A stretch of 64,000 nucleotides of DNA from Meiothermus taiwanensis DSM 14542 (lineage in GTDB: Bacteria > Deinococcota > Deinococci > Deinococcales > Thermaceae): assembly GCA_000482765.1 (NCBI GenBank), contig AXWR01000001.1, forward strand, positions 62,001-126,000, written 5' to 3'. Of this stretch, positions 13,394-57,639 are shown in pieces (within the stretch, counting starts at the first letter, position 1; each line of letters begins with the position of its first letter). The position numbers were made by a program, and so were the translations under genes. The notes beneath the pieces are model-generated. The model saw only the letters and a list, made by a program, of their open reading frames with translations. It was not told the origin of the DNA and did not search any database.

Positions 13394-13519
13394 TACCAGA
13401 TTCGGTTAGTTCGTCACCGAATGGTGGCGAACTAACCCGACCGAAGGGAGTGCTCTAGGATTCAAAAAGATAGCCTCTGAAGGTCTTTGCGTTGGAAGAT
13501 TATCTTTTTGAATCCGGTA
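13394..13519 (+). repeat. Dispersed palindromic repeat, copy A (full length, short form)
   Basis: Reference copy: TACCAGATTC (13394) to GAATCCGGTA (ending 13519). Hairpin 1: GGTTAGTTCG (13404-13413) with CGAACTAACC (13428-13437), extended inside by CACC/GGTG around GAAT. Hairpin 2: GGATTCAAAAAGATA (13458-13472) with its perfect 15-base complement at 13501-13515. The copy begins at the base after the uppS stop codon. Confidence 0.85.
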
Positions 13520-13528
13520 TAACCTAGG

Positions 13529-14731
13529 TCAAAACACCAGCAAAACAAGCAAGGCCAGCACGCCCCCCGGTATCAGGCCAAGGGCCACGTATGCCCCCAG
13601 CCCCTTAGCCCCAAACGCCAGGGCGGCTTTGAACACGGTGTTACTAAGCGCAGCAACCAGAATAGCAACGGAAGCCACCGATACCATGAGCTGCTGGTTG
13701 GCGGCCAGCCGGGCCAGGGAGAGCGTGATAGCGTCTACATCAGCCACCCCTGAAAAAGCGCTCACCACAAACACCCCGGCACTGCCAAAAACCTCGAGGC
13801 CCGCCCTCGCCAGCAGTTTGACCAGGGCATACACACCGGCAAAGATCAGCGCGCTTTGGAGCTGCAAGGGATTCTGTACCGGTACACTTTCGGAGATACC
13901 GGAATCATGCCGGGCCAGCCAGGCCGTGACCAGCACCCCCCACAGCAGCCACACGAGCACCGGGAACCAAAGCAGCTGTAAAAGGGCCGGGGCTGTGGCG
14001 CTCCAGACCAGCAAGCGTCCCAACATCATCTGGGAAGCCAGCACCACCCCACCAGCCCAGAGCAGGTTTTTACTGGGGTTGGCCCGGCTTTGGGTCACCA
14101 TCGAGAGGGTGACGGCGGTGGACGAAACCAGCCCCCCCAAAATGGCCGCTACCCACAAGCCTTTGGAGCCCGACAACCGCAAGGCCAGATAGCCCACAAA
14201 GTTGACCCCAGCCACCAGCAAAACCACCTGCCAGATTTCGCGGGGGTTCCAGACCCCATAGGGGCCATAGTTGACATCGGGCAGCAAGGGATAGACCACC
14301 CCCAGCAGCAGGGCCAGCAACACCACCGCTTCCACCTCGCTCCGCTCTATTCCACCCGCGAAGGCGTGCAGCTCGTCGTGGAAGGCCAGAAAGCCCAACA
14401 GCAAAGCCCCGGCAAACAGCGCGGGCAGCACGATCCCCAGGCCGCACAGCACACCCAGCACATACACCACCAGGGCGGCCACCTGGCTGGTAGCATCGCG
14501 GCTATTTTTCAGTGTGTATACCGCCAGGCCAGCCACCCCCAGCAGCCCTGCCGCCGAAAGCCATGGGGCTGGCCCCAGGGCCCCCACCCCACCCAGCAGC
14601 CCCAGCAGGGTGAAGGTACGCACCCCTCCAATGGTCGAACCCTGCCGTTCGACTTTGGCGCGCTCACGCTCGAGGCCCACCGCAAAGCCGATCAGGGTGG
14701 CGGCCAGCAAATGCCATAAAGACTCCTGCAT
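13529..14731 (-). CDS. MgtC/SapB-DUF4010 family membrane protein
   Basis: A 400-aa polytopic membrane protein. The N-terminal MgtC-like part has LLAATLIGFAVGLERERAK and GGVRTFTLLGLLGG; the C-terminal DUF4010 part has GGLVSSTAVTLSM and AFSGVADVDAITLSLARLA. About eleven hydrophobic segments are visible. MgtC relatives modulate Mg2+ or ATPase homeostasis, but the DUF4010 fusions are uncharacterised. It lies 65 bases downstream of the SMR gene on the same strand and may share its transcript. Confidence 0.9.
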   Translation of the reverse strand: MQESLWHLLAATLIGFAVGLERERAKVERQGSTIGGVRTFTLLGLLGGVGALGPAPWLSAAGLLGVAGLAVYTLKNSRDATSQVAALVVYVLGVLCGLGIVLPALFAGALLLGFLAFHDELHAFAGGIERSEVEAVVLLALLLGVVYPLLPDVNYGPYGVWNPREIWQVVLLVAGVNFVGYLALRLSGSKGLWVAAILGGLVSSTAVTLSMVTQSRANPSKNLLWAGGVVLASQMMLGRLLVWSATAPALLQLLWFPVLVWLLWGVLVTAWLARHDSGISESVPVQNPLQLQSALIFAGVYALVKLLARAGLEVFGSAGVFVVSAFSGVADVDAITLSLARLAANQQLMVSVASVAILVAALSNTVFKAALAFGAKGLGAYVALGLIPGGVLALLVLLVF

Positions 14732-14796
14732 CTCTTTACGCTACTACTTTTGCCCAGCGCAATCCTTCAGCAAGGTAGATCAGGGGTAGGGTTATC

Positions 14797-15126
14797 TCAG
14801 TGGTGTAGCCTCGAGGCCAGATTCAGCACCACCACCCCTGCGATGATAAGAAGGATGCCCAGGGCAATAGCGCCGTTCATAGGCTCCTTAAGCACCCACC
14901 AGCCCAGCAGCGCAATCAGAGCAGTGCCCAGCCCCGACCAGATGGCGTAGGCGATATTGAGCGGAATGGTTTTGAGGGAGAGGCTCAGAAAATAAAAGGC
15001 CAGGCCATAGCCCAGCACCACCACCAGCGAAGGCAGCAGTTTGCTAAACCCCTGGGAGGCCTTGAGTGCGGTGGAACCAATCACCTCAGAGACAATCGCA
15101 ACCATGAGTAAAAGCCATCCGTTCAT
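14797..15126 (-). CDS. Small multidrug resistance (SMR) exporter
   Basis: A 109-aa four-helix inner-membrane antiporter of the EmrE/QacE type. The membrane-embedded Glu of helix 1 ([19 protein letters not shown]), the helix 3 motif [17 protein letters not shown] and a short basic end are intact. SMR proteins export quaternary cations or guanidinium by proton exchange as antiparallel dimers. Only one SMR gene is seen, so a homodimer is expected. GGAAGA precedes the ATG. It is divergent from the response-regulator gene. Confidence 0.93.
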
Positions 15127-15153
15127 TCTTCCAGACTACACCGCGCCGCCGTG

Positions 15154-15159
15154 TACAAT
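15154..15159 (+). promoter_or_regulatory. -10 element of the NarL-type regulator gene
   Basis: TACAAT eight bases before the ATG at 15168; leaderless-type spacing. Confidence 0.55.
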
Positions 15160-15167
15160 ACCTGGTA

Positions 15168-15818
15168 ATGATTCGCATCTTGCTTGCCGATGATCACGCC
15201 CTTTTTCGCCAGGGGCTCAAAAGCCTGCTGGAAGCTGAGCCCGACTTTAAGGTCATGGGCGAGGCTAAGGACGGGCGCGAGGCCCTACGCCACGCCCTCG
15301 AGGCCCACCCCGACATCATCCTGATGGACATCCAGATGCCCAACCTCGATGGCGTGCAGGCCACCCAGGAAATCCTCAAGGAATGGCCCCAGGCCAAGGT
15401 GATTATGCTCACCATGTACCGCCAGGACGGCTACGTCTTCGAGGCGGTAAAGGCCGGGGCACGGGGCTACATGCTCAAGGACGCCGACGCCAAGGAACTG
15501 CTGGAAGCCATCCGGCGGGTGTATCAGGGCGAGGTCTTGCTGGATGCCGAGATGGCCGAGCAGATCATCCAAGACTTCAAGGCCAAGCAAGAAACCACCC
15601 CCAAGGCCCACGCCGAGCTTTCCGAGCGCGAGGTGCAGATTTTGCGCCTGGTGGCCCAGGGCTACACCAACCTCGAGATCGCCGCCGAGCTATCGCTCTC
15701 GGAAAAAACCGTGCGCAACCGCCTGTCGGACATCTTTCAGAAACTTCACCTCAACAACCGCACCCAGGCCGCCCTCTACGCCCTGCGCGAGGGGTTGGCA
15801 GAAAAAAGCGACGAGTAG
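15168..15818 (+). CDS. NarL/FixJ-family response regulator
   Basis: A 216-aa two-component regulator. The receiver domain has the acidic pair ADD (8-9), the phospho-acceptor Asp54 in [12 protein letters not shown] and Lys in GYMLKDAD. The C-terminal LuxR-type helix-turn-helix is [34 protein letters not shown] (split by family convention at about 150-205). No histidine kinase is adjacent, so this is an orphan regulator whose partner is elsewhere. The signal is unknown. Confidence 0.95.
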
Positions 15819-15830
15819 GCCCAGGGCCGG

Positions 15831-15836
15831 TATGAT
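15831..15836 (+). promoter_or_regulatory. -10 element of the M20 peptidase gene
   Basis: TATGAT nine bases before the ATG at 15846. Confidence 0.5.
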
Positions 15837-15845
15837 CTGGTTTGC

Positions 15846-16880
15846 ATGAGTGATTTTGCCACCGAAACCACCCGCGATCCCGTCCTGCTGCTGGCAGAAA
15901 TCGCCGAAATTAGCGGCGATGCTGCCCGGGCAGCCTGGGTTGCTCAGCAGCTGCAAGCCCAGGGGCTGCCTCCCCAGACCGACGAACTGGGCAATGTCTG
16001 GGCCGGCCAGGGCCCCATCTTGCTCATAGCCCACATCGACACCGTACTGCCCCCCGCCCCCTTGCGGCGGGAACAGCACCGCTGGTACGGCCCGGCCGTG
16101 GGCGATAACTCGTCGGGGGTAGCGGTCTTGCTGGCCCTGGCCGCTGAGCTGGTGGCCTTGGGCTGTACGGTGGCCTTTAGCGTGGGCGAGGAAGGCTTGG
16201 GTAACCTGCGGGGGGCCCGGCGCCTGGTTAGGCATCTACAGCCGCAGCAGGTGGTGGCGGTGGATGGGTATTTACCCGGTATCGTAAGCCGCTCGGCGGG
16301 CTCCCACCGGCTGCGGGCCCGCTTTATTGGCCCCGGCGGCCACGCCTGGGGCGACCGGGGGGCTCCATCCCCGGTGCCGGCCCTGGGGCAGGCCCTGGCT
16401 CAGATGTACGCCCTCGAGCGCACCAACCACACCAGCCTGAATGTGGGGCGGCTGTGGGGGGGTGAGGCCATCAACGCCATTCCCCAGGAAGTGGGCTTTG
16501 AGCTTGACCTGCGGGCCCTGGACGCAACAGAACTGGCTCAGATGGTGGCCCAGGTGCGCGAAATTCTGATGGAAGCGGCCCGTAAGTTCAATCTACGGAT
16601 GGAGATTGAGGTACTCGGCGAGCGGCCAGCAGGCATGACCGCCACCCGCCCCATGCTGGAGGCCGCCCGTCAGGCCCTGATGGAGATCGGCCTCGAGGCC
16701 CAGTTCACCGCCGGCTCTACCGATGCCTCGGCTGGGGTGGAGGTAGGCCTCCCGGCCATCACCCTGAGCGTCTACCAGGGGGGCGGGGCCCACACCCCCG
16801 AAGAATGGGTGGAGCCCGACTCCCTGCGCTTGGGAGCACGCGCGCTGCGCAGCTTTGTGCGGCAGCTCCTCCAGATATAA
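15846..16880 (+). CDS. M20-family metallopeptidase
   Basis: A 344-aa zinc hydrolase of the M20/M25/M40 clan. Metal and catalytic motifs: LLIAHIDTVLPP (His, Asp), GPAVGDNSSGVAVLL (bridging Asp), FSVGEEGLGNLRGAR (Glu pair), VAVDGY and, near the end, the HTPEEWVEPDSL histidine. The dimerisation insert lies at about 165-275 (FIGPGGHAWGDRG). Members cut dipeptides, N-acyl or carbamoyl amino acids. It does not look like the LysW-linked LysK/ArgE enzymes of Thermus, so I leave the substrate open. Confidence 0.9.
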   Translation: MSDFATETTRDPVLLLAEIAEISGDAARAAWVAQQLQAQGLPPQTDELGNVWAGQGPILLIAHIDTVLPPAPLRREQHRWYGPAVGDNSSGVAVLLALAAELVALGCTVAFSVGEEGLGNLRGARRLVRHLQPQQVVAVDGYLPGIVSRSAGSHRLRARFIGPGGHAWGDRGAPSPVPALGQALAQMYALERTNHTSLNVGRLWGGEAINAIPQEVGFELDLRALDATELAQMVAQVREILMEAARKFNLRMEIEVLGERPAGMTATRPMLEAARQALMEIGLEAQFTAGSTDASAGVEVGLPAITLSVYQGGGAHTPEEWVEPDSLRLGARALRSFVRQLLQI

Positions 16881-16924
16881 CGGCCTCGTAACGTTGATCC
16901 TGCTACCCTCCAGCCTGAGGGGTT

Positions 16925-17137
16925 ATGTCCAACAACCGATCTTTCCTGCTGCAGCTCTGGCAAGACCAGGGAGGTGTCTGGGTGGTGCTCAAGGACGAGG
17001 TCTGCGGGCTGCTTTACCAGTTTGAGAGCCTCGAGGCACTGATCCATTTCCTGGCGCAAACCACGGGGTTTTCGCCACAGGCCCATGCCATTAAGGAAGC
17101 CGCGCGGGGCGCACCCGGAGAAAACAACCCGCAATAG
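16925..17137 (+). CDS. Small protein of unknown function
   Basis: A 70-aa frame opening MSNNRSFLLQLWQDQGGVWV, followed by LKDEVCGLLYQFESLEALIHFL and a charged end. GAGGGG precedes the ATG at good spacing. The pattern of alternating beta and helical residues with a single Cys resembles small ORF products that sit alone in Thermus-group genomes. It occupies an otherwise empty 280-base gap and reads in the direction of its neighbours. No family is recognised. Confidence 0.5.
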   Translation: MSNNRSFLLQLWQDQGGVWVVLKDEVCGLLYQFESLEALIHFLAQTTGFSPQAHAIKEAARGAPGENNPQ

Positions 17138-17149
17138 CCAAGAGTGCGA

Positions 17150-17155
17150 TAGGAT
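17150..17155 (+). promoter_or_regulatory. -10 element of the gene at 17162
   Basis: TAGGAT six bases before GTG 17162, supporting that GTG as a leaderless start. Confidence 0.5.
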
Positions 17156-17161
17156 AGTCGG

Positions 17162-18001: not shown

Positions 18002-18046
18002 TGCTTGGTCGAATAAACTACAGTCAGGTTATTGGGGAGGAATAAA

Positions 18047-20005: not shown

Positions 20006-21904
20006 ATGCACGAAGAAGAAGCCTTTAAAAAGAGTTTTGATGCCAAGCTGGCCCGGCGCATCCTGAAGTATGTGCGTCCCTACTGGAAGCAGGTGGGGCT
20101 GGCCCTGCTGGCGCTGGTGGTGAGCACCCTCACCGCCGCCTCCACCCCGCTTTTCCTCAAGTACGCCATTGACAACGCCATCGTGCCGCGCGAGGTGCTC
20201 CCCCTGGCCCAGCGCTACGAGACCCTGTTGCTGGTCTGCGCGGTTTTTCTGGCGGTGCGGGTGGTGGACTTTATCGCCAACTACGCGCAAACCTACCTGA
20301 TTAGCTGGGTGGGGCAGCACATCCTCTTCGACCTGCGCTCGGAGATCTTCGCCAAGCTCCAGCGCATGCATCTGGGCTACTTCGACCGCAACCCCGTGGG
20401 CCGTCTGATGACCCGCATCACCTCCGATGTGGACGCCATCAACCAGTTCATCACCGGCGGGCTGGTGGGGCTGATCGCCGACTTCGCCCTGATCATCGGC
20501 CTGATGACCTTCATGCTGGTGCTGGACTGGCGCCTGGCCCTGGTAGCCTTCGCCATCATGCCCATCTTCCTGGCCGTGACCACCTGGATCCGAGGTGGGA
20601 TGCGCGAGGCCTACCGGGCCATGCGGCTGCGGCTGTCGAGGGTTAATGCTTCACTGCAAGAAAACCTGGCCGGCGTCCAGACCACCCAGCTTTTCAACCG
20701 GGAGCCCAAGAACGAAGCGCAGTTCAACCTGCTCTCCAGCGATCTGCGCGGGGCCTGGGTGGAGATCATCAAGTGGTTTGCCCTGTTCTTCCCTTTGGTG
20801 GGCCTCATGGGTGAGGTCACGGTGGCCCTGTTGCTGTGGTACGGGGGCGGGCAGGTCATACAGCAGGCCATTACCCTGGGCTTGCTGGTGGCTTTCACCG
20901 ATTACGTGCGCCAGCTCTTCCAGCCCCTGCAGGATCTTTCCGAGAAGTTCAACATCTTCCAGGCCGCCATGGCCTCGGCGGAGCGCATTTTTGGCCTGCT
21001 GGACACCAAAGAAGAGGTGGCCGACAAGCCGGGGGCGATACCGGTCGAGCGCTTTAGAGGCCAGATTGACTTCGAGGACGTCTGGTTTGCCTATGGCCGG
21101 CGGGGCGAGGCCAAACCCCAGGGAACGGAGCCTGGGGATGAAGGAAAGGAGGTTGAAGCAGCCGGCCTCGAGGTGATCGAGCCCACCACCCCTGAAGAGG
21201 GCGAGTGGGACTGGGTGCTGCGGGGGGTGAGCTTCCGGGTGCGGCCCGGCGAGAAGGTGGCCCTGGTGGGGGCCACCGGCGCGGGCAAGACCAGCGTGAT
21301 TAGCCTGATCGCCCGTTTCTACGACGTGCAGCAGGGTGCGGTCAAGATCGATGGCCTGGACGTGCGGGAGTACCGGCAGCGCGACCTGCGCCGGGCCATT
21401 GGCATCGTGCTGCAAGAGCCTTTTCTGTTCAGCGGCACCATTGCCTCGAACCTGCGGCTGGGCGACGAAAGCATTACCTTAGAGCGCATCGAGGAGGTGT
21501 GTGCCTTTGTGGGGGCCGACGAGTTTATAAAGCGGCTGCCGCAGGGTTACGAGACCGTTCTGCACGAGCGCGGCGGGGGGCTTTCCACGGGGCAGAAGCA
21601 GCTTTTGGCCCTGGCCCGGGCCATCCTGCACAACCCCGACATCCTGCTGATTCTGGACGAGGCCACCGCCAACGTGGACTCCGAGACCGAGCAGAAAATT
21701 CAGGCCGCGCTCGAGCGGGTTATGCAGGGCCGCACCTCGATTGTGATCGCCCACCGGCTCTCGACCATCCGCCATGTGGATCGGATTCTGGTCTTCCGCA
21801 AGGGCAGGCTGCTGGAAGAGGGCAGCCACGACGAGCTACTGAAAAAGGGCGGCTACTATGCCAGGCTCTACGAGCTGCAGTACGTGCATGGCGGCGGGGC
21901 CTGA
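20006..21904 (+). CDS. ABC exporter half-transporter with canonical Walker B (TmrA-like)
   Basis: A 632-aa fused membrane/ATPase subunit with six helices (about 25-315). Walker A GATGAGKTS, Walker B LLILDEATANVD with catalytic Glu552, and switch IAHRLST are canonical, but the signature is LSTGQKQ in place of LSGGQ. Paired with the preceding gene (degenerate Walker B, perfect LSGGQ), this gives one complete and one degenerate ATP site, as in TmrAB and TAP-type heterodimers. About 35 extra residues rich in Glu and Pro sit in the ATPase near the A-loop (after VWFAYGRRGEAK). Substrate may be drugs, peptides or lipids. Confidence 0.92.
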   Translation: MHEEEAFKKSFDAKLARRILKYVRPYWKQVGLALLALVVSTLTAASTPLFLKYAIDNAIVPREVLPLAQRYETLLLVCAVFLAVRVVDFIANYAQTYLISWVGQHILFDLRSEIFAKLQRMHLGYFDRNPVGRLMTRITSDVDAINQFITGGLVGLIADFALIIGLMTFMLVLDWRLALVAFAIMPIFLAVTTWIRGGMREAYRAMRLRLSRVNASLQENLAGVQTTQLFNREPKNEAQFNLLSSDLRGAWVEIIKWFALFFPLVGLMGEVTVALLLWYGGGQVIQQAITLGLLVAFTDYVRQLFQPLQDLSEKFNIFQAAMASAERIFGLLDTKEEVADKPGAIPVERFRGQIDFEDVWFAYGRRGEAKPQGTEPGDEGKEVEAAGLEVIEPTTPEEGEWDWVLRGVSFRVRPGEKVALVGATGAGKTSVISLIARFYDVQQGAVKIDGLDVREYRQRDLRRAIGIVLQEPFLFSGTIASNLRLGDESITLERIEEVCAFVGADEFIKRLPQGYETVLHERGGGLSTGQKQLLALARAILHNPDILLILDEATANVDSETEQKIQAALERVMQGRTSIVIAHRLSTIRHVDRILVFRKGRLLEEGSHDELLKKGGYYARLYELQYVHGGGA

Positions 21905-21914
21905 TTGGGCAGGG

Positions 21915-24560
21915 CTACAGCGCCTCCAGCGCTTCACGCTGGCGCTCGACAAGGGCCAGCAAGCGCGATAGGAGGGCTTTTTCTGCCAAGACCACCAGGC
22001 CTTTTTGCTTCAAGGGCACCAGCACCAGCACCCACTGGGGGAGTGATATAACCGAGAGGCGGGCCGGCTGTCCCGAGAGTTCGTTGGCCAGGTTGATCAG
22101 GTCGTCGAAAACCACCTGAGCACTCTTGGAGGCAAAAGGTAGCCCGCCCGCCACCACCTGCCCCCCTTCAACCAGGGCCACCGCCTCCACACCCCGTATG
22201 CGAAACTGCCTCAGCACCTCAGGCTCGGGGAGGGTGGCGGGCTGGGATGAGGGTGTAGGTGGTGGGCTGGGCGCCTGGAAAACGTCCAGCAAGGACTCGA
22301 GGTCGGCCCCTTTTAGTTCTTGCAAGACGCTCTGGGCTGCCTCGTACTCCTGGGCTAGCTGCGCCTCGAGGCGCTCGGCTTCCTCCAAAGCCCGCCGCAC
22401 CTCGAGCAAACCGCTGGCCCCCAGGCGGGGCAGGCGCTCAGCCGCCGATTGCAGGAAGTCGCACAATGGCTTGAGGCGCAGGGCGGTTTCACCCCCCACC
22501 CCTTTGTGCACACCATAGGCCTCGAGCAAAGCCCCTATACGCGCGCCCAGGTCGGCCCGCAGCGTCTCCTGGGCGCGACGCAGACGGCCCAGGAGCGCGT
22601 GAATCTCGCTCAGGTCGGGTAGTTCACCGGCCTGGAGGTAGGTTCGGGCCTGGGCCACTTTAGCCTCGAGCTCCTCACCCCCCAGCCCCTTCATGCTGCG
22701 GGCCACCGCTTCGTAGCGCGAGAGTTCCTCGGCGATGGAAGCCCGCCGAGCCGCTACCAGATCGTCCAGCGCTCGCTCCAACGGGCTGGGGTCGGCAATA
22801 CGGCCCTGGGCCAGGGCCTCACGGTTGGCCTGCAGGGGTTTCTTGAGTTCGATCAGGGATTCCTTGAGGACGCGCTCGAGGTGCTGGATGCGGGCCTCGA
22901 GGGCCTCCAGCCGGCCCAGCACCACCCCCCGGGCGCGCTCCACCAGGGCCTGCACCGCCGCCTCAAGCTCGGCCAGCGTGCCCAATCCCTGCTCGAGCTG
23001 CTGCAACAGGCGCTTTTTATCAGCCTCGAGGGGCTCGAGGCTTGGCAAAGCCTGCACGCTGGCCCGCAGGCCCATGCGCTTGAGGCTTTCCTCCTCGCGC
23101 TCCCGGGCCAGCTGGGAGAGCAGGTCGGAAAGCTCCTGGCGCAGGGTGCTCAAGGCCGCCTCGGAGATATCCGGGGCAGCCAGGGCCGTCAGGAAAGACT
23201 CCACCTGGGGCCGCCCACGGAAGGGCGACAGGGCATGTTCGGCCTCGCTGCGCAAAGTGGCCAGCGCGGCCTCGAGGCGGGCCTGGCGGGCCTTGTTTTC
23301 GCGGTTGGCCTTCTCTTCGGCCTCGAGGCTCTCCAGGTTGCGCTCCAGCTCGGCCAGCTCATGGGGAATCCCACCGGCCTGCAAGGTTTCCAGGGCCACC
23401 ATCAAGCGCGCCTGCAGGGGGGCGGTTCGCTCCGAGGGCAGCTCGAGGCGGCCCAGGCGGTCGGCCAGCCACTCATAGCGCACCCGGGCCTCGGTTAAGG
23501 CCTCCTGGTGTGCGGTCTTGAGCAGCTCGGCAAAAGCATCCAGACGCTCCCCTAGGGGATTGCCGGCCGATAGCTCGGCCTCCAGTTCGGCCAGCTCACC
23601 AGCCACACTGGCCTGGTTCAGCACAGCCACATAGCGCTCTTTGAGTGACTCCAGCCGGCGGGCGTCCTCGGCCACATCGATCTCGCGGATGCGCGACAGC
23701 TGCTCAGAGGTCAGGGCCTCAAAGTCGAGGTCGATCACCAGGGCTTCGTCGTCGAAGCCGTCGCTGGCCTCCTCCAACACCACCGGCGCTTCGATGGTGG
23801 GGTCTTTGAGCACCACCTGTGGCTCGGTCGGCACGATTTCCTCGATGGTATCCAGGGTAATGGCAGCCTCACCGGTGGGATTCTGCACCACCGAGGACTC
23901 GACCAGCTTGCGCATATCAGCCGCCAGGGCCCGGGCTCGCTCCACCTCAGCGGCGGCCAGGGTTTCCTGGGCGTGGGCCTCCTGGATAATCCGGATCAGG
24001 TTTTCCAGGCGGCGCACCTTGGCCCCACCCACGCTCTGCACTCGAGATAAGCTCATCTCCAGCTCGGCAATATCCCGGGTCTGGCGCAGCAAAGCCGCCT
24101 GGAGCTTCTCCTCGAGCTGGGCCAGCACCTCCTGCCCCTCACGCAACAAAGTGCGCGCCGCAGCAGCCTCGGGATCCTGCTTAATCGCGTTGACCAGACC
24201 ACGCAGGCGCCCAACCTCGGGCCAGTCCAGGTACAGGCTGAAGCGCTTTAGGCCGGCCTCGAGATCCGCCAGCACCCCCTGGGCATGCGCCGACAACCCA
24301 CCGGTAGCGGACTTGGTGCTTTTCTCTCCACCAAGCCCCAGGGTTTTGAGCAGCTCCTCGATATGACTGCGGGCTGCGCTGGGGCTCATTTTGGCCTGAA
24401 GTTCGCGGTACACCAGGCGCTTGAGAATGGTCTCGGCCTCGGATGCGTCGAGCTTATCCGGGCTGGTGCCCAGCCGACGAAGGCCCTCTTCCAGCACCAC
24501 CCGGGCACGATCCCCCAGCACCGGCTCGAGGGACTTACTGAGAGTCTGATACAGCGACAA
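21915..24560 (-). CDS. Large coiled-coil protein with C-terminal Roadblock/LC7-like domain
   Basis: About 881 aa from TTG 24560, chosen because GGGAGG lies six bases upstream; an in-frame ATG at 24584 lacks a ribosome site. Residues 1-75 form a small helical domain (SLYQTLSKSLEPVLGDRARV). Coiled coil runs about 90-225, an acidic linker with VIDLDFEAL about 228-284, then a very long coiled coil to about 755. A proline-rich linker (APSPPPTPSSQP) leads to a last 95 residues (FRIRGVEAVALVEGGQVVAG ... LSVISLPQWVLVLVPL) with the strand-helix pattern of Roadblock/LC7 domains, which bind small GTPases such as MglA. No signal peptide. A polarity, motility or scaffold role is inferred. It may be co-transcribed with the C26 gene 196 bases upstream. 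Confidence 0.8.
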   Translation of the reverse strand: MSLYQTLSKSLEPVLGDRARVVLEEGLRRLGTSPDKLDASEAETILKRLVYRELQAKMSPSAARSHIEELLKTLGLGGEKSTKSATGGLSAHAQGVLADLEAGLKRFSLYLDWPEVGRLRGLVNAIKQDPEAAAARTLLREGQEVLAQLEEKLQAALLRQTRDIAELEMSLSRVQSVGGAKVRRLENLIRIIQEAHAQETLAAAEVERARALAADMRKLVESSVVQNPTGEAAITLDTIEEIVPTEPQVVLKDPTIEAPVVLEEASDGFDDEALVIDLDFEALTSEQLSRIREIDVAEDARRLESLKERYVAVLNQASVAGELAELEAELSAGNPLGERLDAFAELLKTAHQEALTEARVRYEWLADRLGRLELPSERTAPLQARLMVALETLQAGGIPHELAELERNLESLEAEEKANRENKARQARLEAALATLRSEAEHALSPFRGRPQVESFLTALAAPDISEAALSTLRQELSDLLSQLAREREEESLKRMGLRASVQALPSLEPLEADKKRLLQQLEQGLGTLAELEAAVQALVERARGVVLGRLEALEARIQHLERVLKESLIELKKPLQANREALAQGRIADPSPLERALDDLVAARRASIAEELSRYEAVARSMKGLGGEELEAKVAQARTYLQAGELPDLSEIHALLGRLRRAQETLRADLGARIGALLEAYGVHKGVGGETALRLKPLCDFLQSAAERLPRLGASGLLEVRRALEEAERLEAQLAQEYEAAQSVLQELKGADLESLLDVFQAPSPPPTPSSQPATLPEPEVLRQFRIRGVEAVALVEGGQVVAGGLPFASKSAQVVFDDLINLANELSGQPARLSVISLPQWVLVLVPLKQKGLVVLAEKALLSRLLALVERQREALEAL

Positions 24561-26675: not shown

Positions 26676-26778
26676 ATAGCGGATTCGGTGAGTTTGGCCC
26701 CTTTCGGGGCCAAACCAACCCGACCAACGGGATACGCTTTCTTCGCCGAGCGTAGCGAGGGGTGTGCTCTAGGATTCA
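26675..26778 (+). repeat. Dispersed palindromic repeat, copy B0 (3'-truncated)
   Basis: Starts near GGATTCGG and ends at CTAGGATTC, where the next copy begins. Its hairpin 1 has a different sequence from copy A, GTTTGGCCCC/GGGGCCAAAC, but still pairs perfectly over ten bases. It also carries the optional module GATACGCTTTCTTCGCCGAG shared with copy D. Confidence 0.75.
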
Positions 26779-26903
26779 TACCAGATTCGGTTAGTTCGGC
26801 ACCGAATGGCGACGAACTAACCCGACCGAAGGGAGTGCTCTAGGATTCAAAAAGATAGCCTCTGGAGGTCTTTGCTTTGGAAGATTATCTTTTTGAATTC
26901 GGT
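26779..26903 (+). repeat. Dispersed palindromic repeat, copy B (full length)
   Basis: TACCAGATTC at 26779 to GAATTCGGT near 26903. Nearly identical to copy A over its whole length, including hairpin 2 GGATTCAAAAAGATA and its complement. Fused directly to the end of copy B0. Confidence 0.85.
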
Positions 26904-27687: not shown

Positions 27688-27770
27688 TACCAGATTCAAA
27701 AAGATCATCGTCCAGGGCAAAAACCGTCAGAGGCTATCTTTGAGCACTGACGTTGGTCGGGTTGGTTGAC
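27688..27770 (-). repeat. Dispersed palindromic repeat, copy C (truncated, inverted)
   Basis: On the minus strand it runs from CAACCAACCCGACCAACG through AAAGATAGCCTCTGACGG to GATCTTTTTGAATCTGGTA. The left end with hairpin 1 is missing. It is most like copy E, so the two form a sub-family. Confidence 0.75.
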
Positions 27771-35068: not shown

Positions 35069-35258
35069 TACCAGATTCGGTTAGTTCGTCACCGAATGGC
35101 GGCGGCTACCCCGACCGAAGTTATCCGCGTAGCGGAGGGCGATACCGCCCCTTGGAAGGGATACGCTTTCTTCGCCGAGCGTAGCGAGGGGTGTGCTCTA
35201 GGATTCAAAAAGATAGCCTCTGAATGTTTTTTGTTTGAAGATTATCTTTTTTCCGGTA
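35069..35258 (+). repeat. Dispersed palindromic repeat, copy D (long form)
   Basis: TACCAGATTC at 35069 to CCGGTA ending 35258, next to the stop codon of the VWA gene on the other strand. It has an extra inner module of about 70 bases (TTATCCGCGTAGCGGAGGGC and GATACGCTTTCTTCGCCGAG), parts of which occur in copies B0 and G. Hairpin 1 is partly decayed; hairpin 2 keeps GGATTCAAAAAGATA but loses a few bases on the right. Confidence 0.85.
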
Positions 35259-37953: not shown

Positions 37954-38044
37954 TACCAAGATTCGGCTAGCCCGACCAACGGCAGTGCTCAAAGATAGCC
38001 TCTAACGGTCTTTGCCCTGGACGACGATCTTTTTGAATCCGGTA
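37954..38044 (+). repeat. Dispersed palindromic repeat, copy E (deleted form)
   Basis: TACCAAGATTC at 37954 to GAATCCGGTA ending 38044. Hairpin 1 is reduced to GGCTAGCCCGACC and the CTAGGATTCA part is lost, but AAAGATAGCC and GATCTTTTTGAATCC remain. Very like copy C. It lies 24 bases before the UDG gene. Confidence 0.8.
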
Positions 38045-47910: not shown

Positions 47911-47911
47911 C

Positions 47912-51269: not shown

Positions 51270-52427
51270 ATGCGCTATTTACTGGCTTGCTCAATGGTGG
51301 CCCTGGCTGCTTGCCAGGACGCTCCCACAGGCGAACCTTCCCTTTATCTCAGCCTGCTCGTCCCCTCCGGCCTCGATCAGCCCCTCTATCTGACCCATGC
51401 CGGCGACGGCAGTGGAAACCTGTACGTGGTAGAAAAAGCCGGGCGCATTCGGCTCATCGAAAATGGGGCCCTGCGTGCCCAAGCCTTCCTCGACATCACC
51501 GCAAAAACCGCCAAAGGCGGCGAACAGGGCTTGCTGGGCCTGGCTTTTCACCCCAACTACCGCAACAACGGCTTCTTCTACGTCAACTACACCAACACCG
51601 CTGGCGATACCATCATTGCCCGCTACACAGCCAACCGCAGCAGCAAGGTGGCCGACCCCGGTTCCGAGCAGATCGTCCTCAGCGTAGACCAGCCCTACGA
51701 TAACCACAACGCCGGCTGGCTGGGTTTTGGCCCCGACGGCATGCTCTACATTCCCCTGGGGGATGGGGGCTCAGGTGGTGACCCGCAAAACCACGCCCAG
51801 CGCCTCGAGCCCCAGAGCGGGAATCGGCACCTGCTGGGCAAAGTCTTGCGCATCGACATCAATGGCAGCGAGCAGGGGCGCAACTATCGCATCCCCCCCG
51901 ATAACCCCCGCCTGGGCGGACGGGTTTCGGAAATCTGGGCCTACGGCCTGCGCAACCCTTGGCGGGCCAGCTTCGATAGACAGACCGGCGATCTCTGGAT
52001 CGGCGATGTGGGCCAGAACAGCCAGGAAGAAGTCAACCGGGGCCTAGGCGGTGGCAAAGGGCTTAACTACGGCTGGAAAATCATGGAAGGCACCGACTGC
52101 TACGACAACAGCATCGCCCCCGGCTGCCACAGCAGTGACCTAACCCCACCCGTACATACCTACGGACGCAACGACGGTTACTCCGTGATAGGGGGCTACG
52201 TCTACCGAGGCCGGCGCTTTCCCCGGATGCAGGGCCGCTATTTCTTCACCGACTTTGGCTCGGGCCACCTCTGGAGCCTGCGCCAGGTCAATGGGGCCTG
52301 GGAGCGCAAAACCGAGCTGGCCTCGGCTGGAAGCGCCCTGGCCTCCTTCGGCGAGGATGAGCAGGGTGAACTGTATGTCATAAGCCTAACCGCAGGGCAG
52401 GTCTGGCGACTGGAAGATCGACCCTAA
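51270..52427 (+). CDS. PQQ-type soluble aldose sugar dehydrogenase, lipoprotein copy
   Basis: A 385-aa six-bladed beta-propeller of the sGDH/Asd family. A lipoprotein signal ends in MVALAAC (Cys15). PLYLTHAGDGSGNLYVVEKAG, GGEQGLLGLAFHPNY, YDNHNAGWLGFGPDGMLYIPLGDGG and EIWAYGLRNPWRASFDRQTG are the family blocks, with the NHN and GDGG parts at the active site. It would oxidise aldoses at the outer face of the membrane if PQQ is available. GAGGAAA lies before the ATG. A paralogue follows 82 bases downstream. Confidence 0.92.
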   Translation: MRYLLACSMVALAACQDAPTGEPSLYLSLLVPSGLDQPLYLTHAGDGSGNLYVVEKAGRIRLIENGALRAQAFLDITAKTAKGGEQGLLGLAFHPNYRNNGFFYVNYTNTAGDTIIARYTANRSSKVADPGSEQIVLSVDQPYDNHNAGWLGFGPDGMLYIPLGDGGSGGDPQNHAQRLEPQSGNRHLLGKVLRIDINGSEQGRNYRIPPDNPRLGGRVSEIWAYGLRNPWRASFDRQTGDLWIGDVGQNSQEEVNRGLGGGKGLNYGWKIMEGTDCYDNSIAPGCHSSDLTPPVHTYGRNDGYSVIGGYVYRGRRFPRMQGRYFFTDFGSGHLWSLRQVNGAWERKTELASAGSALASFGEDEQGELYVISLTAGQVWRLEDRP

Positions 52428-52509
52428 AACAGACCCTGCACCCAACCCGGCGGGTCAACTTGTAGCCTGCACACACCGACCTCAGAAAAAGCTTGGCTAC
52501 ACTGCCTTC

Positions 52510-53613
52510 ATGCGACAGATCGTTTGCTTTACCCTGTTGTGGTTCGGCCTGGCTTCTGCGCAATCTATTAACCTGGTTCCAATCGCCAGCAACCTCAGCC
52601 GCCCGCTGTTCCTCACCTATTCCCCGGACGATACCGGACGGCTTTTTATCCTCGAGCAGGGCGGCACCATCCGCATCTGGCAGAACGGGCGGCTGCTCGC
52701 AGAGCCATTCCTGGATATAAGCAACCTGGTCTCTTGCTGCGGTGAACGGGGTCTCTTGGGACTGGCCTTCCATCCCAACTTCCGCCAGAACAATTTGTTC
52801 TTTATCAACTACACCAACCGCAGCGGCGATACCGTAGTTGCCCGCTACCGCGCGAACGGCAACCGCGCCGAGACAAGCTCCGCCCAGATCCTGCTCACCA
52901 TCGAGCAGCCCTATGCCAACCACAACGGCGGCATGATCGCTTTTGGCCCGGACGGCATGCTGTACATCGGCATGGGCGACGGGGGCTCGGCCGGCGACCC
53001 CCTCAACGCCGGCCAGCGGCTCGACACCTTGCTGGGCAAGATCCTGCGCATAGATGTGAACCGTAGCGAGGGCAACCGGGCCTATGCCATCCCCGCTGAC
53101 AACCCCGTTCTGGCCGGGCGCCGCAGCGAGATCTGGTCGTATGGTTGGCGCAACCCCTGGCGCTTCAGCTTCGATCGTCAGACCGGCGATCTGTGGGTCG
53201 CAGATGTCGGGCAGAACGCTGTGGAGGAGGTACACTTTCAACCGGCCAGCAGCAAAGGCGGCGAGAACTACGGCTGGCGCATTATGGAAGGGGATCGGTG
53301 TTTCAATCCCCCGCAAAACTGCAACCGCAACGGTCTGGTAATGCCCGTGTTGACCTACACCCACGAGCAGGGCCGCTCCATCACCGGGGGCTACCGCTAC
53401 CGGGGCAACGCCATGCCGGCCTTCCGTGGGGCTTACTTTTATGCCGACTATGTGAGCGGTCGCATCTGGGCGGCCACCCCCCAGGGCAGCGGCTGGCAGA
53501 GCCGGGAGGTGCTTAAGACCGATCTAAACATCAGTTCTTTTGGCGAAGACGCCGAGGGCGAGCTATATGTGGTAGATCACCGCGGTACTGTCTACCGTAT
53601 GACCCAACGCTAA
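52510..53613 (+). CDS. PQQ-type soluble aldose sugar dehydrogenase, secreted copy
   Basis: A 367-aa paralogue of the preceding gene with a normal signal peptide (MRQIVCFTLLWFGLASA) and no lipid Cys. GERGLLGLAFHPNFRQN, YANHNGGMIAFGPDGMLYIG, MGDGGSAGDP and EIWSYGWRNPWRFSFDRQTG are conserved. SCCGERG adds a CC pair. The two copies differ enough across their length to be an old duplication. Whether they are true PQQ enzymes or related Hhip/YliI-like propellers cannot be decided from sequence alone. Confidence 0.92.
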   Translation: MRQIVCFTLLWFGLASAQSINLVPIASNLSRPLFLTYSPDDTGRLFILEQGGTIRIWQNGRLLAEPFLDISNLVSCCGERGLLGLAFHPNFRQNNLFFINYTNRSGDTVVARYRANGNRAETSSAQILLTIEQPYANHNGGMIAFGPDGMLYIGMGDGGSAGDPLNAGQRLDTLLGKILRIDVNRSEGNRAYAIPADNPVLAGRRSEIWSYGWRNPWRFSFDRQTGDLWVADVGQNAVEEVHFQPASSKGGENYGWRIMEGDRCFNPPQNCNRNGLVMPVLTYTHEQGRSITGGYRYRGNAMPAFRGAYFYADYVSGRIWAATPQGSGWQSREVLKTDLNISSFGEDAEGELYVVDHRGTVYRMTQR

Positions 53614-53634: not shown

Positions 53635-53653
53635 CGGTTGGTTTCACCCAGGC

Positions 53654-54403: not shown

Positions 54404-54553
54404 GATGCCTCCTGATGGCAAGAACGCCACAAACGGCCCAATGATAGGGGCTCCACACGCCCTATGCCTGAGAGGGATTACAAATTTTCTTAATCGAATC
54501 AGTGCCCGTCCTATTCGCACATAGAAGGCCCGTCGCCAGCCCCGATCCACCGG

Positions 54554-54559
54554 TATGCT
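54554..54559 (+). promoter_or_regulatory. -10 element of glnA
   Basis: TATGCT six bases before ATG 54566. Confidence 0.5.
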
Positions 54560-54565
54560 GTATAC

Positions 54566-55927
54566 ATGGCACGAACCAAGCAGGACATACTGCAAGAGCT
54601 CAAAGAACAGCAGGTGCGCTTCCTGCGTTTACAGTTCACCGATATCCTGGGCATTAACAAGGTCGTCGAGCTACCGGTGAATCAGTTCGAAAAGGCGCTG
54701 GACGGCGAGATCATGTTCGATGGCTCCTCCATCGAGGGCTTTGGCCGCCGGGAGGTAGAGGAGTCGGATATGTTGCTAAAGCCGGACTACAACACCTTTG
54801 TGGTCTATCCGAGCGACCTCGAGCCCAGCACCAAAGGGGCCGTGGCCCGCCTCATCTGCGACATTGCCTACCCCGATGGCAAACCCTTTGAGGGCGACCC
54901 CCGGCAGGCGCTCAAGCGGCAGATTGAGCGGGCTCAGAAAAAAGGCTTCGACAACCTCTATGTGGGCAGCGAGGTGGAGTTCTTTTTGTTCAACCGCAGC
55001 CCAGAAGGCGGCCCCACCACCCATACCTACGACCGGGCCGGCTACTTCGACCTGGCCCCCACCGACAAAGGCGAGGAGGCCCGCCGGGATATGGTGGACA
55101 TGCTGGTGCGGATGGGTTTGCAGCTCGAGGCCGCCCACCACGAAGGGGCCCCCGGCCAGCACGAGATCGACCTCAAGTACACCGATGCCCTGCAGGCCGC
55201 CGACAACCTGACCACCCTCAAGTTTGTGGTCAAGCGCGTCGCCATCAACCACGGGCTGCACGCCACCTTTATGCCCAAACCCATCGCCGGCATCAACGGC
55301 TCGGGGTTGCATTTCCACCTTTCGCTCTTCAAAAATGGCGAAAATGCCTTTTATGAGCCAAAGGGGAAGCTCGAGGCCTGGCCCCACCAACTTTCCAAAA
55401 CCGCCCTGCAATTTATCGCCGGCCTCTTCGAGCACGCCGAGGGCATGGCCGCCATCACCAACCCGCTGGTCAACTCCTACAAGCGCCTGACCCCCGGCTA
55501 CGAGGCCCCTACCAGCGTGGCCTGGTCGGTCTCACACCGCAGCGCCATGATCCGGGTGCCCAAGCGGCGCGGCGTAGGCACCCGGGCCGAGTTTCGTTTC
55601 CCCGACCCCTCCTGCAACCCCTACCTGGCCCTGGCGGCAATCCTGGGGGCAGGCCTCGAGGGTATCGAGAACAACCTGACCCCCCCGCCGCCCATCGAGC
55701 GCGACGTATACGAGCTTTCGGTGCGCGACCGGCGCAAGTACCGCGTAAGCGAGATGCCCGGAACCCTGCGCGAGGCCCTCGAGGCCCTGCAAAAGAACCG
55801 GGTTATACGGGCTGCGCTGGGTGAGCAAATTTATAAAGATTTCCTACACGCCAAACAGGTGGAATGGAACTCTTACCGAATCGCAGTACACCAGTGGGAG
55901 CTTGACCAGTACTTGGCTGAGTACTAG
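54566..55927 (+). CDS. glnA: Glutamine synthetase, type I
   Basis: A 453-aa dodecameric ligase making glutamine from glutamate, ammonia and ATP. MFDGSSIEGFGR, YVGSEVEFFLFN, GINGSGLHFHLSLFKNG, NSYKRLTPGYEAPTSVAWS and RAEFRFPDPSCNPYLALAA are the nucleotide, metal and glutamate motifs. The adenylylation-site Tyr context of GSI-beta (NLYDLPPEE) is absent, so it is of the GSI-alpha form, as in Gram-positives and Thermus, and is not controlled by adenylylation. It links proline-derived glutamate with nitrogen assimilation. Confidence 0.97.
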   Translation: MARTKQDILQELKEQQVRFLRLQFTDILGINKVVELPVNQFEKALDGEIMFDGSSIEGFGRREVEESDMLLKPDYNTFVVYPSDLEPSTKGAVARLICDIAYPDGKPFEGDPRQALKRQIERAQKKGFDNLYVGSEVEFFLFNRSPEGGPTTHTYDRAGYFDLAPTDKGEEARRDMVDMLVRMGLQLEAAHHEGAPGQHEIDLKYTDALQAADNLTTLKFVVKRVAINHGLHATFMPKPIAGINGSGLHFHLSLFKNGENAFYEPKGKLEAWPHQLSKTALQFIAGLFEHAEGMAAITNPLVNSYKRLTPGYEAPTSVAWSVSHRSAMIRVPKRRGVGTRAEFRFPDPSCNPYLALAAILGAGLEGIENNLTPPPPIERDVYELSVRDRRKYRVSEMPGTLREALEALQKNRVIRAALGEQIYKDFLHAKQVEWNSYRIAVHQWELDQYLAEY

Positions 55928-55978
55928 CACAAAACGGAGGTTTTTGCTGGATTGCTTGTAAGATGAAAGGCTTCATCG

Positions 55979-56076
55979 GTGGTATGCGGCGGTCTTACCG
56001 AAGGGAGTGCTCTAGGATTCAAAAAGATAGCCTCTGGAGGTCTTTGCTTTAGATGATTATCTTTTTGAATCCAGTA
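55979..56076 (+). repeat. Dispersed palindromic repeat, copy F (5'-truncated)
   Basis: Begins inside the region after hairpin 1 (GGTATGCGGCGGTCTTACCG) and runs through GGATTCAAAAAGATA and its complement to CCAGTA near 56076. The right half is nearly identical to copies A and B. Confidence 0.8.
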
Positions 56077-56145
56077 CTACAACCAGCCAATGCCATTCCA
56101 CACGCATCCTGACCTGATTCAAGAATCATACAAAGCACCGGGAGA

Positions 56146-56184
56146 ATCTTGCATTTTTATCCAGGACGATCTTGCATTTTTATC
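56146..56184 (+). promoter_or_regulatory. 16-bp direct repeat upstream of livK
   Basis: ATCTTGCATTTTTATC at 56146-56161 and again at 56169-56184, identical, starting 23 bases apart (about two helix turns). It lies about 50 bases upstream of the -35 box, consistent with an activator or nitrogen/amino-acid regulator site. Confidence 0.6.
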
Positions 56185-56232
56185 AGAGTTGTGTAGGCTC
56201 ATATTGGCTGGTCAGCAGAACATCCCCCTAGA

Positions 56233-56263
56233 TTGACACAACACAGCATGGGTTAGGTAAAAT
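56233..56263 (+). promoter_or_regulatory. livK promoter
   Basis: TTGACA (56233-56238) and TAAAAT (56258-56263) with 19 bases between, followed by a 48-base leader with AGGAGGAA before ATG 56312. Confidence 0.6.
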
Positions 56264-56311
56264 AGGCCAGCCAGCTAAGGCTAAACTTGTTGTTCTTTAG
56301 GAGGAATCGGC

Positions 56312-57472
56312 ATGAAAAAGCTCGCAATTCTAGCACTGGGCGCATTGGCTCTGGGTGCAGCCTCGGCCCAGTCCAATGTGATCAAGATCGCTTCGGTCTC
56401 GCCCCTGTCCGGGCCCCAGTCGGGTCTAGGCACCGCCATCCAGCAGGGCGCTCAGATGGCTATTGAGGACGCCCAGGCCCGCTTCCAGCAGCTTGGCTTC
56501 CAGCTCCAGTTCGCCCCCCAGGACGATCAGGCCAACCCCGATGTGGGTGTGGCTGTGGCCCGGCGTATCGTTAACGACCCCGACCTTTTGGGAATCGTAG
56601 GTCACCTGAACTCAGGTGTGGCCATTCCAGCTTCGGAAATTTATAAAGACACCAACCTGGTGATGGTCTCCCCGGCCAACACCAACCCCCGGGTGACCGA
56701 CCGCGGCTACCTGAGCGTTAACCGCATCTGCGGCCGCGACGATGTGCAGGGCCCGGTGGGCGCCGAGTACGCTGTGAAAGTACTCAAGCGCAACCGCCTG
56801 TTCGTAATCCACGACAAGACCCCCTACGGCCAGGGCCTGGCCGAGGCCTTCGCAGCCCGTGCCAAAGAACTGGGTGCCAACATCGTGGCCCTGGTGGGTA
56901 CCGAGGAAGCCTCCAACTTCCAGCCCCTGATCCTCCAGATGCGCGCCCAGCGCCCCGACCTGGTCTACTACGGCGGTATCTACGACAAGGGCGGCGTGCT
57001 GGTCAAGCAGATGCGGGAGCGCGGCATCACAGCCACCTTCATGGGTGGTGACGGTCTGGACTCCTCCGACCTGGTCAAGATTGCCGGCGCAGCCTCCAAG
57101 GGTGTGCTCTACACCACCACCGCCGGCCCCATCAGCACCCTGCCCAAGGCTGCCGCTTTCGCCCAGCGCTACAAAGCCAAGTTCGGCAAAGACCCCGAGG
57201 CCTACGCGGTGTACGCTTTCGATGCCGCCAACGTGATTCTGAACGCCATCGAAGCTGCCATCAAGGCCAACAACGGCCGTAAACCCACCCGCGAGCAAGT
57301 GGCCCGGGCGGTGCGTGCGGTCAAGATGGACGGCCTTACCGGTCGCATTGAGTTTGACAGCAAGGGTGACCGTAAGCTTTCCGACTACTATGTCGTAGGT
57401 CTGAAAGAGGCCAAGTACCCTGGTGAAGTGCTGCGGGTGATTCAGTTCGCACCCCCGGCTGCTCGCCAGTAA
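56312..57472 (+). CDS. livK: Branched-chain amino acid ABC transporter, substrate-binding protein
   Basis: A 386-aa periplasmic-type binding protein. Signal peptide MKKLAILALGALALGAASAQ, then the Leu/Ile/Val-binding fold with KIASVSPLSGPQSGLGTAIQQGAQMAIED, GIVGHLNSGVAIPASEIY and YAVYAFDAANVILNAIEAA. It captures branched-chain amino acids (or a close relative such as urea or amides) for the LivHMGF importer 440 bases downstream. A strong terminator follows, so the binding protein is made in excess, as is usual. Confidence 0.94.
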   Translation: MKKLAILALGALALGAASAQSNVIKIASVSPLSGPQSGLGTAIQQGAQMAIEDAQARFQQLGFQLQFAPQDDQANPDVGVAVARRIVNDPDLLGIVGHLNSGVAIPASEIYKDTNLVMVSPANTNPRVTDRGYLSVNRICGRDDVQGPVGAEYAVKVLKRNRLFVIHDKTPYGQGLAEAFAARAKELGANIVALVGTEEASNFQPLILQMRAQRPDLVYYGGIYDKGGVLVKQMRERGITATFMGGDGLDSSDLVKIAGAASKGVLYTTTAGPISTLPKAAAFAQRYKAKFGKDPEAYAVYAFDAANVILNAIEAAIKANNGRKPTREQVARAVRAVKMDGLTGRIEFDSKGDRKLSDYYVVGLKEAKYPGEVLRVIQFAPPAARQ

Positions 57473-57491
57473 GGTTGCTTACCCGCCAAAG

Positions 57492-57516
57492 GCCCCCGTT
57501 CACGCGGGGGCTTTTT
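57492..57516 (+). terminator. Terminator of livK
   Basis: GCCCCCG (57492-57498) pairs with CGGGGGC (57505-57511), followed by TTTTT. Confidence 0.92.
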
Positions 57517-57525
57517 GGTTGCTTA

Positions 57526-57639
57526 TACCGGATTCAAAAAGATAATCTTCAAACAAAAAGCATTCAGGGGCGGCTTCGCCCTCCGCTATGCGGACAACTT
57601 CGGTCAGGTTGTCCGGTGCCGAACCAACCGAATCTGGTA
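57526..57639 (-). repeat. Dispersed palindromic repeat, copy G (inverted)
   Basis: On the minus strand it runs from TACCAGATTCGGTTGG to GAATCCGGTA. It carries the TCCGCATAGCGGAGGGCGAA module also seen in copy D, and hairpin 2 in part. Confidence 0.8.

What the first reader, a model, noticed from the sequence alone, without database searches (positions are those of the whole stretch)
13394..57639. Dense family of modular palindromic repeats (at least eight copies)
Copies at 13394, 26675, 26779, 27688 (inverted), 35069, 37954, 55979 and 57526 (inverted) share ends TACCAGATTC and GAATCCGGTA, an inner 15-base perfect inverted repeat (GGATTCAAAAAGATA and complement) and optional modules between. 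All are intergenic, 80-190 bp, and carry no coding frame. Size, terminal inverted repeats and variable orientation fit a MITE or REP-like element moved by an absent transposase. I know of no named family with these ends.
Basis: seen in the sequence. Interest (0 to 1): 0.72.

Follow-up and report, generated by a model that had tools for sequence, protein, structure and literature searches.

The report
Orphan hopping mini-transposon in Meiothermus
The repeats are copies of a tiny, gene-less jumping DNA element that has recently multiplied and spread between hot-spring bacteria using a still unidentified enzyme, and its near-identical copies also record how DNA hairpins rewrite themselves; it is a new family of a known kind of element.

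Summary
The family is real and is a bacterial MITE. All eight window copies are present, some truncated. The window's genome holds 130 exact TACCRGATTCR ends (reversed control 0); 20 of 41 genomes searched have the family, all within one GTDB family. Of 210 full-length copies read with flanks, 176 have identical 3-bp flanks, 175 of them TNA, against about 3 by chance: insertion as by a DDE transposase. Relatives lack it at six window sites compared; one copy sits cleanly inside an older one. In genome G009, 77 of 82 full copies keep the duplication, and one G009 copy is identical over 126 bp to Calidithermus copies although other DNA compared is 68-78% identical: recent burst and horizontal transfer. 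No autonomous partner was found; 86 of 88 exact right ends in G009 were examined. Hairpin 1 covaries strongly, but near-identical copies show loop inversions and paired changes, the signature of DNA template switching, so covariation is not proof of an RNA function. New family of a known kind; its enzyme is unknown.

The parts
13394..13519 (+). Full-length copy A (126 bp), duplication TAA at 13391-13393 and 13520-13522; the left TAA is the stop codon of ORF 12497-13393 (uppS-like by reading its translation, recalled)
   Evidence: element absent in 8 of 8 relatives aligned
13404..13437 (+). Hairpin 1 of copy A: arms 13404-13418 and 13423-13437, 4-nt loop
   Evidence: folds; covariation; loop inversions
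13458..13515 (+). Hairpin 2 of copy A: arms 13458-13472 and 13501-13515; the 3' arm runs into the right terminal repeat
26677..26778 (+). Older, module-bearing copy interrupted by the next copy
26779..26902 (+). Copy inserted in the older copy; TCA on both sides, right end decayed (GAATTCGG)
   Evidence: (95% identity)
27688..27760 (-). Partial inverted copy
   Evidence: 94% complementary to the 37954 copy over 79 nt; no recognisable copy in 4 of 4 relatives aligned
35069..35258 (+). Long copy with both internal modules; left flank TTG, right flank TTA (duplication decayed by one base)
   Evidence: absent in 2 of 2 relatives aligned
37954..38044 (+). Short copy lacking hairpin 1, duplication TCA
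   Evidence: absent in 3 of 3 relatives aligned
55997..56076 (+). Left-truncated copy with intact hairpin 2
   Evidence: 94% identity to copy A positions 47-126; absent in the 1 relative aligned
57526..57639 (-). Full-length inverted copy with variant interior, duplication TTA
   Evidence: absent in 2 of 2 relatives aligned

Best explanation
It is a non-autonomous miniature transposable element (MITE) of Meiothermus, Calidithermus and a further genus of the family. The basic unit is 124-127 bp: terminal repeats TACCRGATTC ... GAATCYGGTA, hairpin 1 next to the left end, a linker in which extra modules may sit, and hairpin 2 whose 3' arm is part of the right end. Shown: insertion at TNA (preferred context TS-TNA-SA) with duplication of the 3 bases, nesting, sites without it in relatives, bursts and transfer between genera. 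Inferred: a DDE transposase supplied in trans recognises the ends, cuts with a 3-nt stagger and pastes copies in; which enzyme is unknown. Inferred from signatures: the arms of hairpin 1 are kept complementary largely by DNA template switching between the arms (arm correction, loop inversion), not necessarily by selection on RNA.
For: Flanks: 176 of 210 identical 3 bp, 175 TNA, about 3.3 expected; palindromic target context; sites without the element at A, C, D, E, F, G; a nested copy whose removal with one TAA restores an older copy; G009 77 of 82 full copies with intact duplication and 18 identical 125-mers; a 126-mer identical in G009, G002 and G022 at different flanks while 4 HSPs of at least 300 bp between masked G009 and G022 stretches are 67.8-78.4% identical, one of them between transposase loci; avoidance of ORFs, 32 of 116 inside crude ORFs against 90.9 expected; AT-rich, mean G+C 46.8% against 59.2% in flanks. 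Template switching: the five commonest loop types all occur also as their reverse complement, GAAC 87/GTTC 16 with no GATC or GTAC among 194; 8 inverted-loop sequence types in three burst sets against about 0.002 expected; near-identical copies differing only by a paired change.
Against: No transposase or autonomous element with these ends was found, so the enzyme is inferred. Relatives' flanks are diverged, so most empty sites do not show a clean single TNA. Arm correction is incomplete: single-side arm changes are common in bursts (5, 7 and 7 in G009-125, G009-156, G013-124), and paired changes in G009 alone are not significant (1 seen, p 0.105, in the 125-bp set; 0 in the 156-bp set). Inverted-loop types may share ancestors. 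Most sampled copies were chosen by similarity to copy A.
Confidence: 0.88

Rival explanations
1. The element is mobilised by an IS5-family transposase of the IS1031 type, which also duplicates TNA (recalled).
For: IS-like elements with transposase hits and TNA duplications exist in these genomes: GAGGCTGTCGTAAAA/TGA in G002, GAGCCTATCC/TTA in G015 and GAGACTGTC/TAA in G003, the latter with 3 of 16 mismatches, GAGACTGTCGTAAA/TGA in G009 with 2 of 14 mismatches. Next to hairpin 2 the element carries a conserved GAGGCTRTC (reverse strand) that resembles those ends.
Against: Their tips are GAG..., the element's tips are TACC...; no transposase locus examined is an element bounded by TACCRGATTC ends (L244 looked so but is an IS inserted into copies). 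In the 3-contig genome G013, which carries many near-identical copies, PF01609 gave two matches and PF13586 one, none with such ends.
Confidence: 0.35
2. The hairpins are kept by selection for an RNA function (mRNA processing or stability), as proposed for ERIC and Correia/NEMIS repeats.
For: Very stable fold, z -5.8 as RNA; 10 pairs with double changes, 51 such cells against 12.3 in shuffles.
Against: DNA folds as well (z -6.9); near-identical burst copies show loop inversion and paired changes that a DNA mechanism explains; no preference for a gene context beyond avoiding ORFs. No expression data.
Confidence: 0.2
3. The loop inversions and swapped hairpins come from gene conversion between copies in opposite orientation, not from template switching within one copy.
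For: In G022, copies with identical remainder carry different hairpins, and one copy has a mixed right arm.
Against: Many changes are confined to a 4-nt loop or one base pair, which short intra-hairpin switching explains most simply; not decisive.
Confidence: 0.3
4. The copies are old vertical inheritance, not mobile.
For: 16 of 18 genomes of the genus have a match.
Against: Empty sites, nested copies, target duplications, identical copies at different loci.
Confidence: 0.02

Closest known systems
Bacterial MITEs as a class (RUP, Correia/NEMIS, ERIC; review PMC2229807, passages read)
   Same: Under 200 bp, no gene, TA at the termini, terminal repeats, target duplication, AT-rich, strong fold.
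   Different: RUP targets sites with TA and is attributed to IS630-Spn1 (passage read); here the duplication is 3 bp TNA and no donor IS was found. ERIC is 127 bp with 7-bp terminal repeats in that table; I did not compare sequences, except that the window has no Rfam match besides two tRNAs.
CIR repeats of Caulobacter and Brucella (PMC2229807, passage read)
   Same: Two long inverted repeats forming two arms joined by a linker; TA at the ends.
   Different: The review's table gives CIR no terminal repeats and an unknown duplication; the element here has both. Sequence not compared.
BOX elements of pneumococcus (PMC3049150, passages read)
   Same: Modular: fixed ends with optional internal modules.
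   Different: BOX carries a variable number of tandem boxB; here basic 124-127 bp, one module 155-158 or 164 bp, both 194-196 bp, one 235-bp copy.
REP/REPIN with RAYT transposases (PMC3116915 and PMC2817692, search listings only)
   Same: Many short hairpin-bearing repeats whose enzyme need not be flanked by the repeat (recalled).
   Different: Here there is a 3-bp target duplication, which tyrosine (Y1) transposition is not expected to make (recalled).
Template-switch mutation at inverted repeats (PMC8794818, PMC8604942, passages read)
   Same: Arm homogenisation or multiple compensatory changes, and spacer or loop inversion.
   Different: Those passages treat RNA genes (mainly rRNA) and yeast protein genes; 'MITE' does not occur in either main text.

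Membership tests
MITE | Short, non-coding, multi-copy | tested here: met
   124-127 bp basic unit; 130 exact ends in the own genome
MITE | Terminal inverted repeats | tested here: met
   TACCRGATTC/GAATCYGGTA
MITE | Target site duplication | tested here: met
   176 of 210 identical 3 bp, 175 TNA
MITE | Insertion shown by filled and empty sites | tested here: met
   nested copy
MITE | AT-rich relative to host | tested here: met
   Mean G+C of copies 46.8% against 59.2% in 300-bp flanks; window 63%
MITE | Ends shared with an autonomous IS that can move it | tested here: not met
   None found: in G009 86 of 88 exact right ends examined, 82 in mini-elements and 4 chance; 12 unpaired left ends; transposase loci; 18 ORF stretches between paired ends or beside odd ends. 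Usual origin rather than a strict requirement
IS5/IS1031-derived MITE | TNA duplication | tested here: met
   that IS1031 uses TNA is recalled
IS5/IS1031-derived MITE | Terminal repeats like IS1031-type ends (GAG...) | tested here: not met
   Tips are TACC; ends of TNA-duplicating IS in these genomes
REP/REPIN | 20-40 bp palindromes, no target duplication | tested here: not met
   about 125 bp with duplications
BOX (modular repeat) | Optional internal modules between fixed ends | tested here: met
   sequence membership in BOX itself not tested
Structured RNA families in Rfam | Match at gathering score | tested here: not met
   Only two tRNAs in the window

The most novel reading that the evidence does not exclude
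The family is moved by an unlinked, non-IS transposase that is not flanked by the element's ends (a DDE counterpart of the RAYT-REPIN arrangement), and hairpin upkeep by template switching keeps the element mobile. The burst of 82 full copies in one genome would then be a natural replicate experiment for hairpin template switching in a thermophile.
Probability: 0.15. Interest if true: 0.75.

Novelty: new member of a known kind. Interest (0 to 1): 0.5.

Why it matters
It adds an apparently undescribed, recently active MITE family in Deinococcota that crosses genus borders and probably breaks short-read assemblies. Its enzyme is missing from what was searched, which makes 'who moves an orphan MITE' a concrete question. 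Its near-identical copies show loop inversions and paired arm changes, a warning that covariation in palindromic mobile elements can arise from DNA template switching and need not mean a conserved RNA.

Tried and rejected
Parent element: ends 0.35-3.5 kb apart in all loci then held were listed with up to 2 mismatches; for 12 such pairs in Thermaceae sequence plus five odd or unpaired ends I translated the stretch (a sixth interval held no ORF of 60 aa) and scanned 18 of the ORF stretches against Pfam: 13 match ordinary non-transposase families, 5 match nothing, none a transposase. Own-genome PF01609: 7 loci, none bounded by the ends. PF01609 in eight related genomes: 134 matches in the tallies, of which 30 loci were fetched and scanned; the single candidate with both ends, L244 in G002, is an IS with ends GAGGCTGTCGTAAAA inserted into copies of the element. 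Eight further stretches with G009 transposase hits: none bounded by the ends. PF13359 0 of 9 genomes. PF07592 0 of 9, but its control rang nowhere, so this says nothing. PF13586 in five genomes: 21 loci, none bounded by the ends, though copies lie near some. Pattern TNATACCRGATTCY in 27 genomes (own, 16 of the genus, 10 of the order; no sister genera): 7 hits, 4 of them copies of the element, 3 leading into other sequence.

Stop-codon targeting: copy A sits exactly on a stop codon, but 13 of 119 copies do so against about 16 expected (11 against 8.4 for the 81 not inside ORFs): rejected.

Element in phage records: none. In plasmid records: two Thermaceae plasmids only. Site B (26677-26903) was not resolved in relatives and was left out. 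From match lengths I first took site C for occupied in some relatives; the alignment does not show a copy there.

Rows dropped: burst copies with more than 8 substitutions were skipped; 16 of 210 copies with more than 2 hairpin mismatches were left out of the loop table; of 45 representatives under 95% identity I aligned 41, leaving out four short or decayed ones (L018, L177, which is the window copy at 57526, L218, L222); only 116 of the 176 copies with identical flanks had enough flank. ORFs there are mechanical, not annotated genes.

Full report
1. Observation. All eight reported copies are in the window, lie between long ORFs, and belong to a family with 130 exact TACCRGATTCR ends in the 3.02-Mb genome against 0 for the reversed control. 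BLAST listed 50 matches of copy A although only 40 of 153 candidates were scored. Some window copies are decayed: the one at 26677 is interrupted by the one at 26779, 27688 is partial, and the one reported at 55979 begins at about 55997.

2. Host range. 20 of 41 genomes searched have the family, in three genera of one family; 0 of 16 genomes from other families of the order have it. Contig lengths identify G003 as Meiothermus hypogaeus and G022 as Calidithermus chliarophilus. Plasmids of Meiothermus taiwanensis WR-220 (4 places) and Allomeiothermus silvanus (1) carry it, with no listed feature under either best match (that gene table is incomplete); for WR-220 the surroundings were read. Phage records: no match.

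3. Anatomy. The basic unit is 124-127 bp. Order: TACCRGATTC; hairpin 1 (15-bp arms, 4-nt loop); a 20-nt linker; hairpin 2 (15-bp arms, about 28-nt loop) whose 3' arm forms the right end; then GGTA. Optional modules sit in the linker: one module gives 155-158 bp or 164 bp, both give 194-196 bp, and one copy has 235 bp. Copies average 46.8% G+C against 59.2% in their flanks. Copy A folds far better than shuffles as RNA (-54 kcal/mol, z -5.8) and as DNA (-31, z -6.9).

4. Mobility. Of 149 full-length copies with flanks, 120 have identical 3-bp flanks, 119 of the form TNA; after adding 61 more copies from G009, 176 of 210, 175 TNA; about 3.3 would be expected by chance. The target context is palindromic, TS-TNA-SA. 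Joined-flank queries and alignments show the site without the element in 8 of 8 relatives for copy A, 2 of 2 for the 35069 copy, 3 of 3 for 37954, 1 of 1 for the copy near 55979, 2 of 2 for 57526, and no recognisable copy in 4 of 4 at 27688. Flanks are diverged, so the clean unit is best seen in L011: removing the inner copy and one TAA restores a continuous older copy.

5. Recent bursts and transfer. In G009, 77 of 82 full copies keep the duplication; most are 125 bp (50) or 156 bp (29), and 18 of the 125-mers are identical. G009 also has one 126-mer of another subtype identical to copies in G002 and in C. chliarophilus (G022) at other flanks. In the stretches fetched, with elements masked, HSPs of at least 300 bp are 67.8-78.4% identical between G009 and G022 (4 HSPs, one between transposase loci) and 72.0-83.8% between G009 and G002 (7 HSPs, three of them in a stretch holding an IS). 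The sample is small, but an identical 126-mer against such divergence means recent horizontal transfer.

6. Who moves it. No element with these ends and a transposase was found. Of the 88 exact right ends of G009, 86 were examined: 21 belong to copies, and of 65 newly fetched 61 have a left end within 60-330 nt and 4 are chance matches within other sequence; 2 at contig ends were not fetched. (The 61 copies added are a slightly different set: two come from the left-end stretches.) Of 95 exact left ends, 12 that I could not pair by coordinates, by eye, were fetched; they are diverged or truncated copies, a short palindrome, or other sequence. ORFs between paired ends elsewhere are ordinary genes where Pfam knows them. 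Transposase families searched are listed under tried and rejected. Only exact ends were traced in G009, so a donor with more divergent ends is not excluded. The TNA duplication points to a DDE enzyme of the IS5/IS1031 type (recalled), and such IS-like elements exist in these genomes, but their tips differ.

7. Hairpin evolution. On 41 copies chosen to be less than 95% identical, 97.3% of cells pair; 10 pairs have double changes (shuffles 4.8 +- 1.3, 0 of 500), with 51 double-change cells (12.3 +- 3.4); slid controls give covariation scores of 0.010-0.078 against 0.149. Nine of the ten covarying pairs are in hairpin 1. Before reading this as RNA selection: the loop of hairpin 1 occurs in both orientations (GAAC 87/GTTC 16, GAAT 50/ATTC 2, GGAT 16/ATCC 1, GGAA 7/TTCC 1, GTAT 3/ATAC 1 of 194), for GAAC/GTTC also among copies identical elsewhere, and without GATC or GTAC. 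In the G009-125, G009-156 and G022-124 sets there are 4, 2 and 2 inverted-loop types where about 0.0016, 0.00035 and 0.00005 are expected under independent substitution. G009 L414 differs from 18 identical copies only by G-C to T-A at one pair, and G013 L294 from the commonest G013 type (4 of 17) only by T-A to G-C; L285 shows the one-sided intermediate. Compensated pairs per set against expectation: G013-124 2 against 0.0044 (possibly one shared event), G000-126 2 against 0.062, G022-126 1 against 0.013, G009-125 1 against 0.11 (p 0.105), G009-156 0. Arm homogenisation and spacer inversion are described for polymerase template switching (PMC8604942, PMC8794818, passages). Conversion between inverted copies is a rival: in G022 some copies with identical remainder carry different hairpins.

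8. Literature. Ten searches of the open library: no paper holds Meiothermus together with 'miniature inverted-repeat'; Meiothermus with MITE, transposase and inverted repeat gives only PMC6352166, whose passages concern Thermus IS elements; Meiothermus with repetitive and palindromic gives two Thermus genome papers that I did not read. The main text of the MITE review PMC10969869 does not contain Deinococcus, Thermus or Meiothermus. Subscription papers and ISfinder were not available, so 'undescribed' is provisional.

9. Verdict. An ordinary kind of element, well supported, in a family I found no name for, with an unusually clean record of recent amplification, transfer and hairpin rewriting, and with no known enzyme.

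Noticed in passing
L244 1130-2040 (G002:C1 about 2994000-2995000): An IS with ends GAGGCTGTCGTAAAA and TGA duplication has inserted into copies of the element, so the element can serve as a landing site for IS.
   Followed up: partly
Next to hairpin 2, alignment A1 columns 76-85: A conserved GATAGCCTC (reverse GAGGCTATC) resembles the ends of IS1031-like elements of the same genomes; could be a transposase site or chance.
   Followed up: no
L433 3270-3314 (G009:C25): A roughly 45-bp palindrome made of two left ends, with unequal flanks (TTA/TGA), probably a deletion fusion of two inverted copies.
   Followed up: no
L465 (plasmid pMtWR-220, NZ_CP021131.1): Four places of the family on a 271-kb Meiothermus taiwanensis plasmid; the best one has no listed feature and lies between a VWA-domain gene and a hypothetical gene.
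   Followed up: partly
window 51517-53217: Diverged direct repeats about 1.2 kb apart (73-79% identity) in two neighbouring ORFs, apparently a tandem gene duplication.
   Followed up: no
G003 contigs C24, C25, C30 and C15, C28: Right ends of the element lie at 167 bp (three contigs) and about 346 bp (two contigs) from contig starts, so the family probably breaks short-read assemblies.
   Followed up: no
L361 (G000:C7 about 21000-22500): The window's genome has an SbcC-like gene (SbcC_Walker_B), half of the hairpin nuclease that would act on such palindromes.
   Followed up: no
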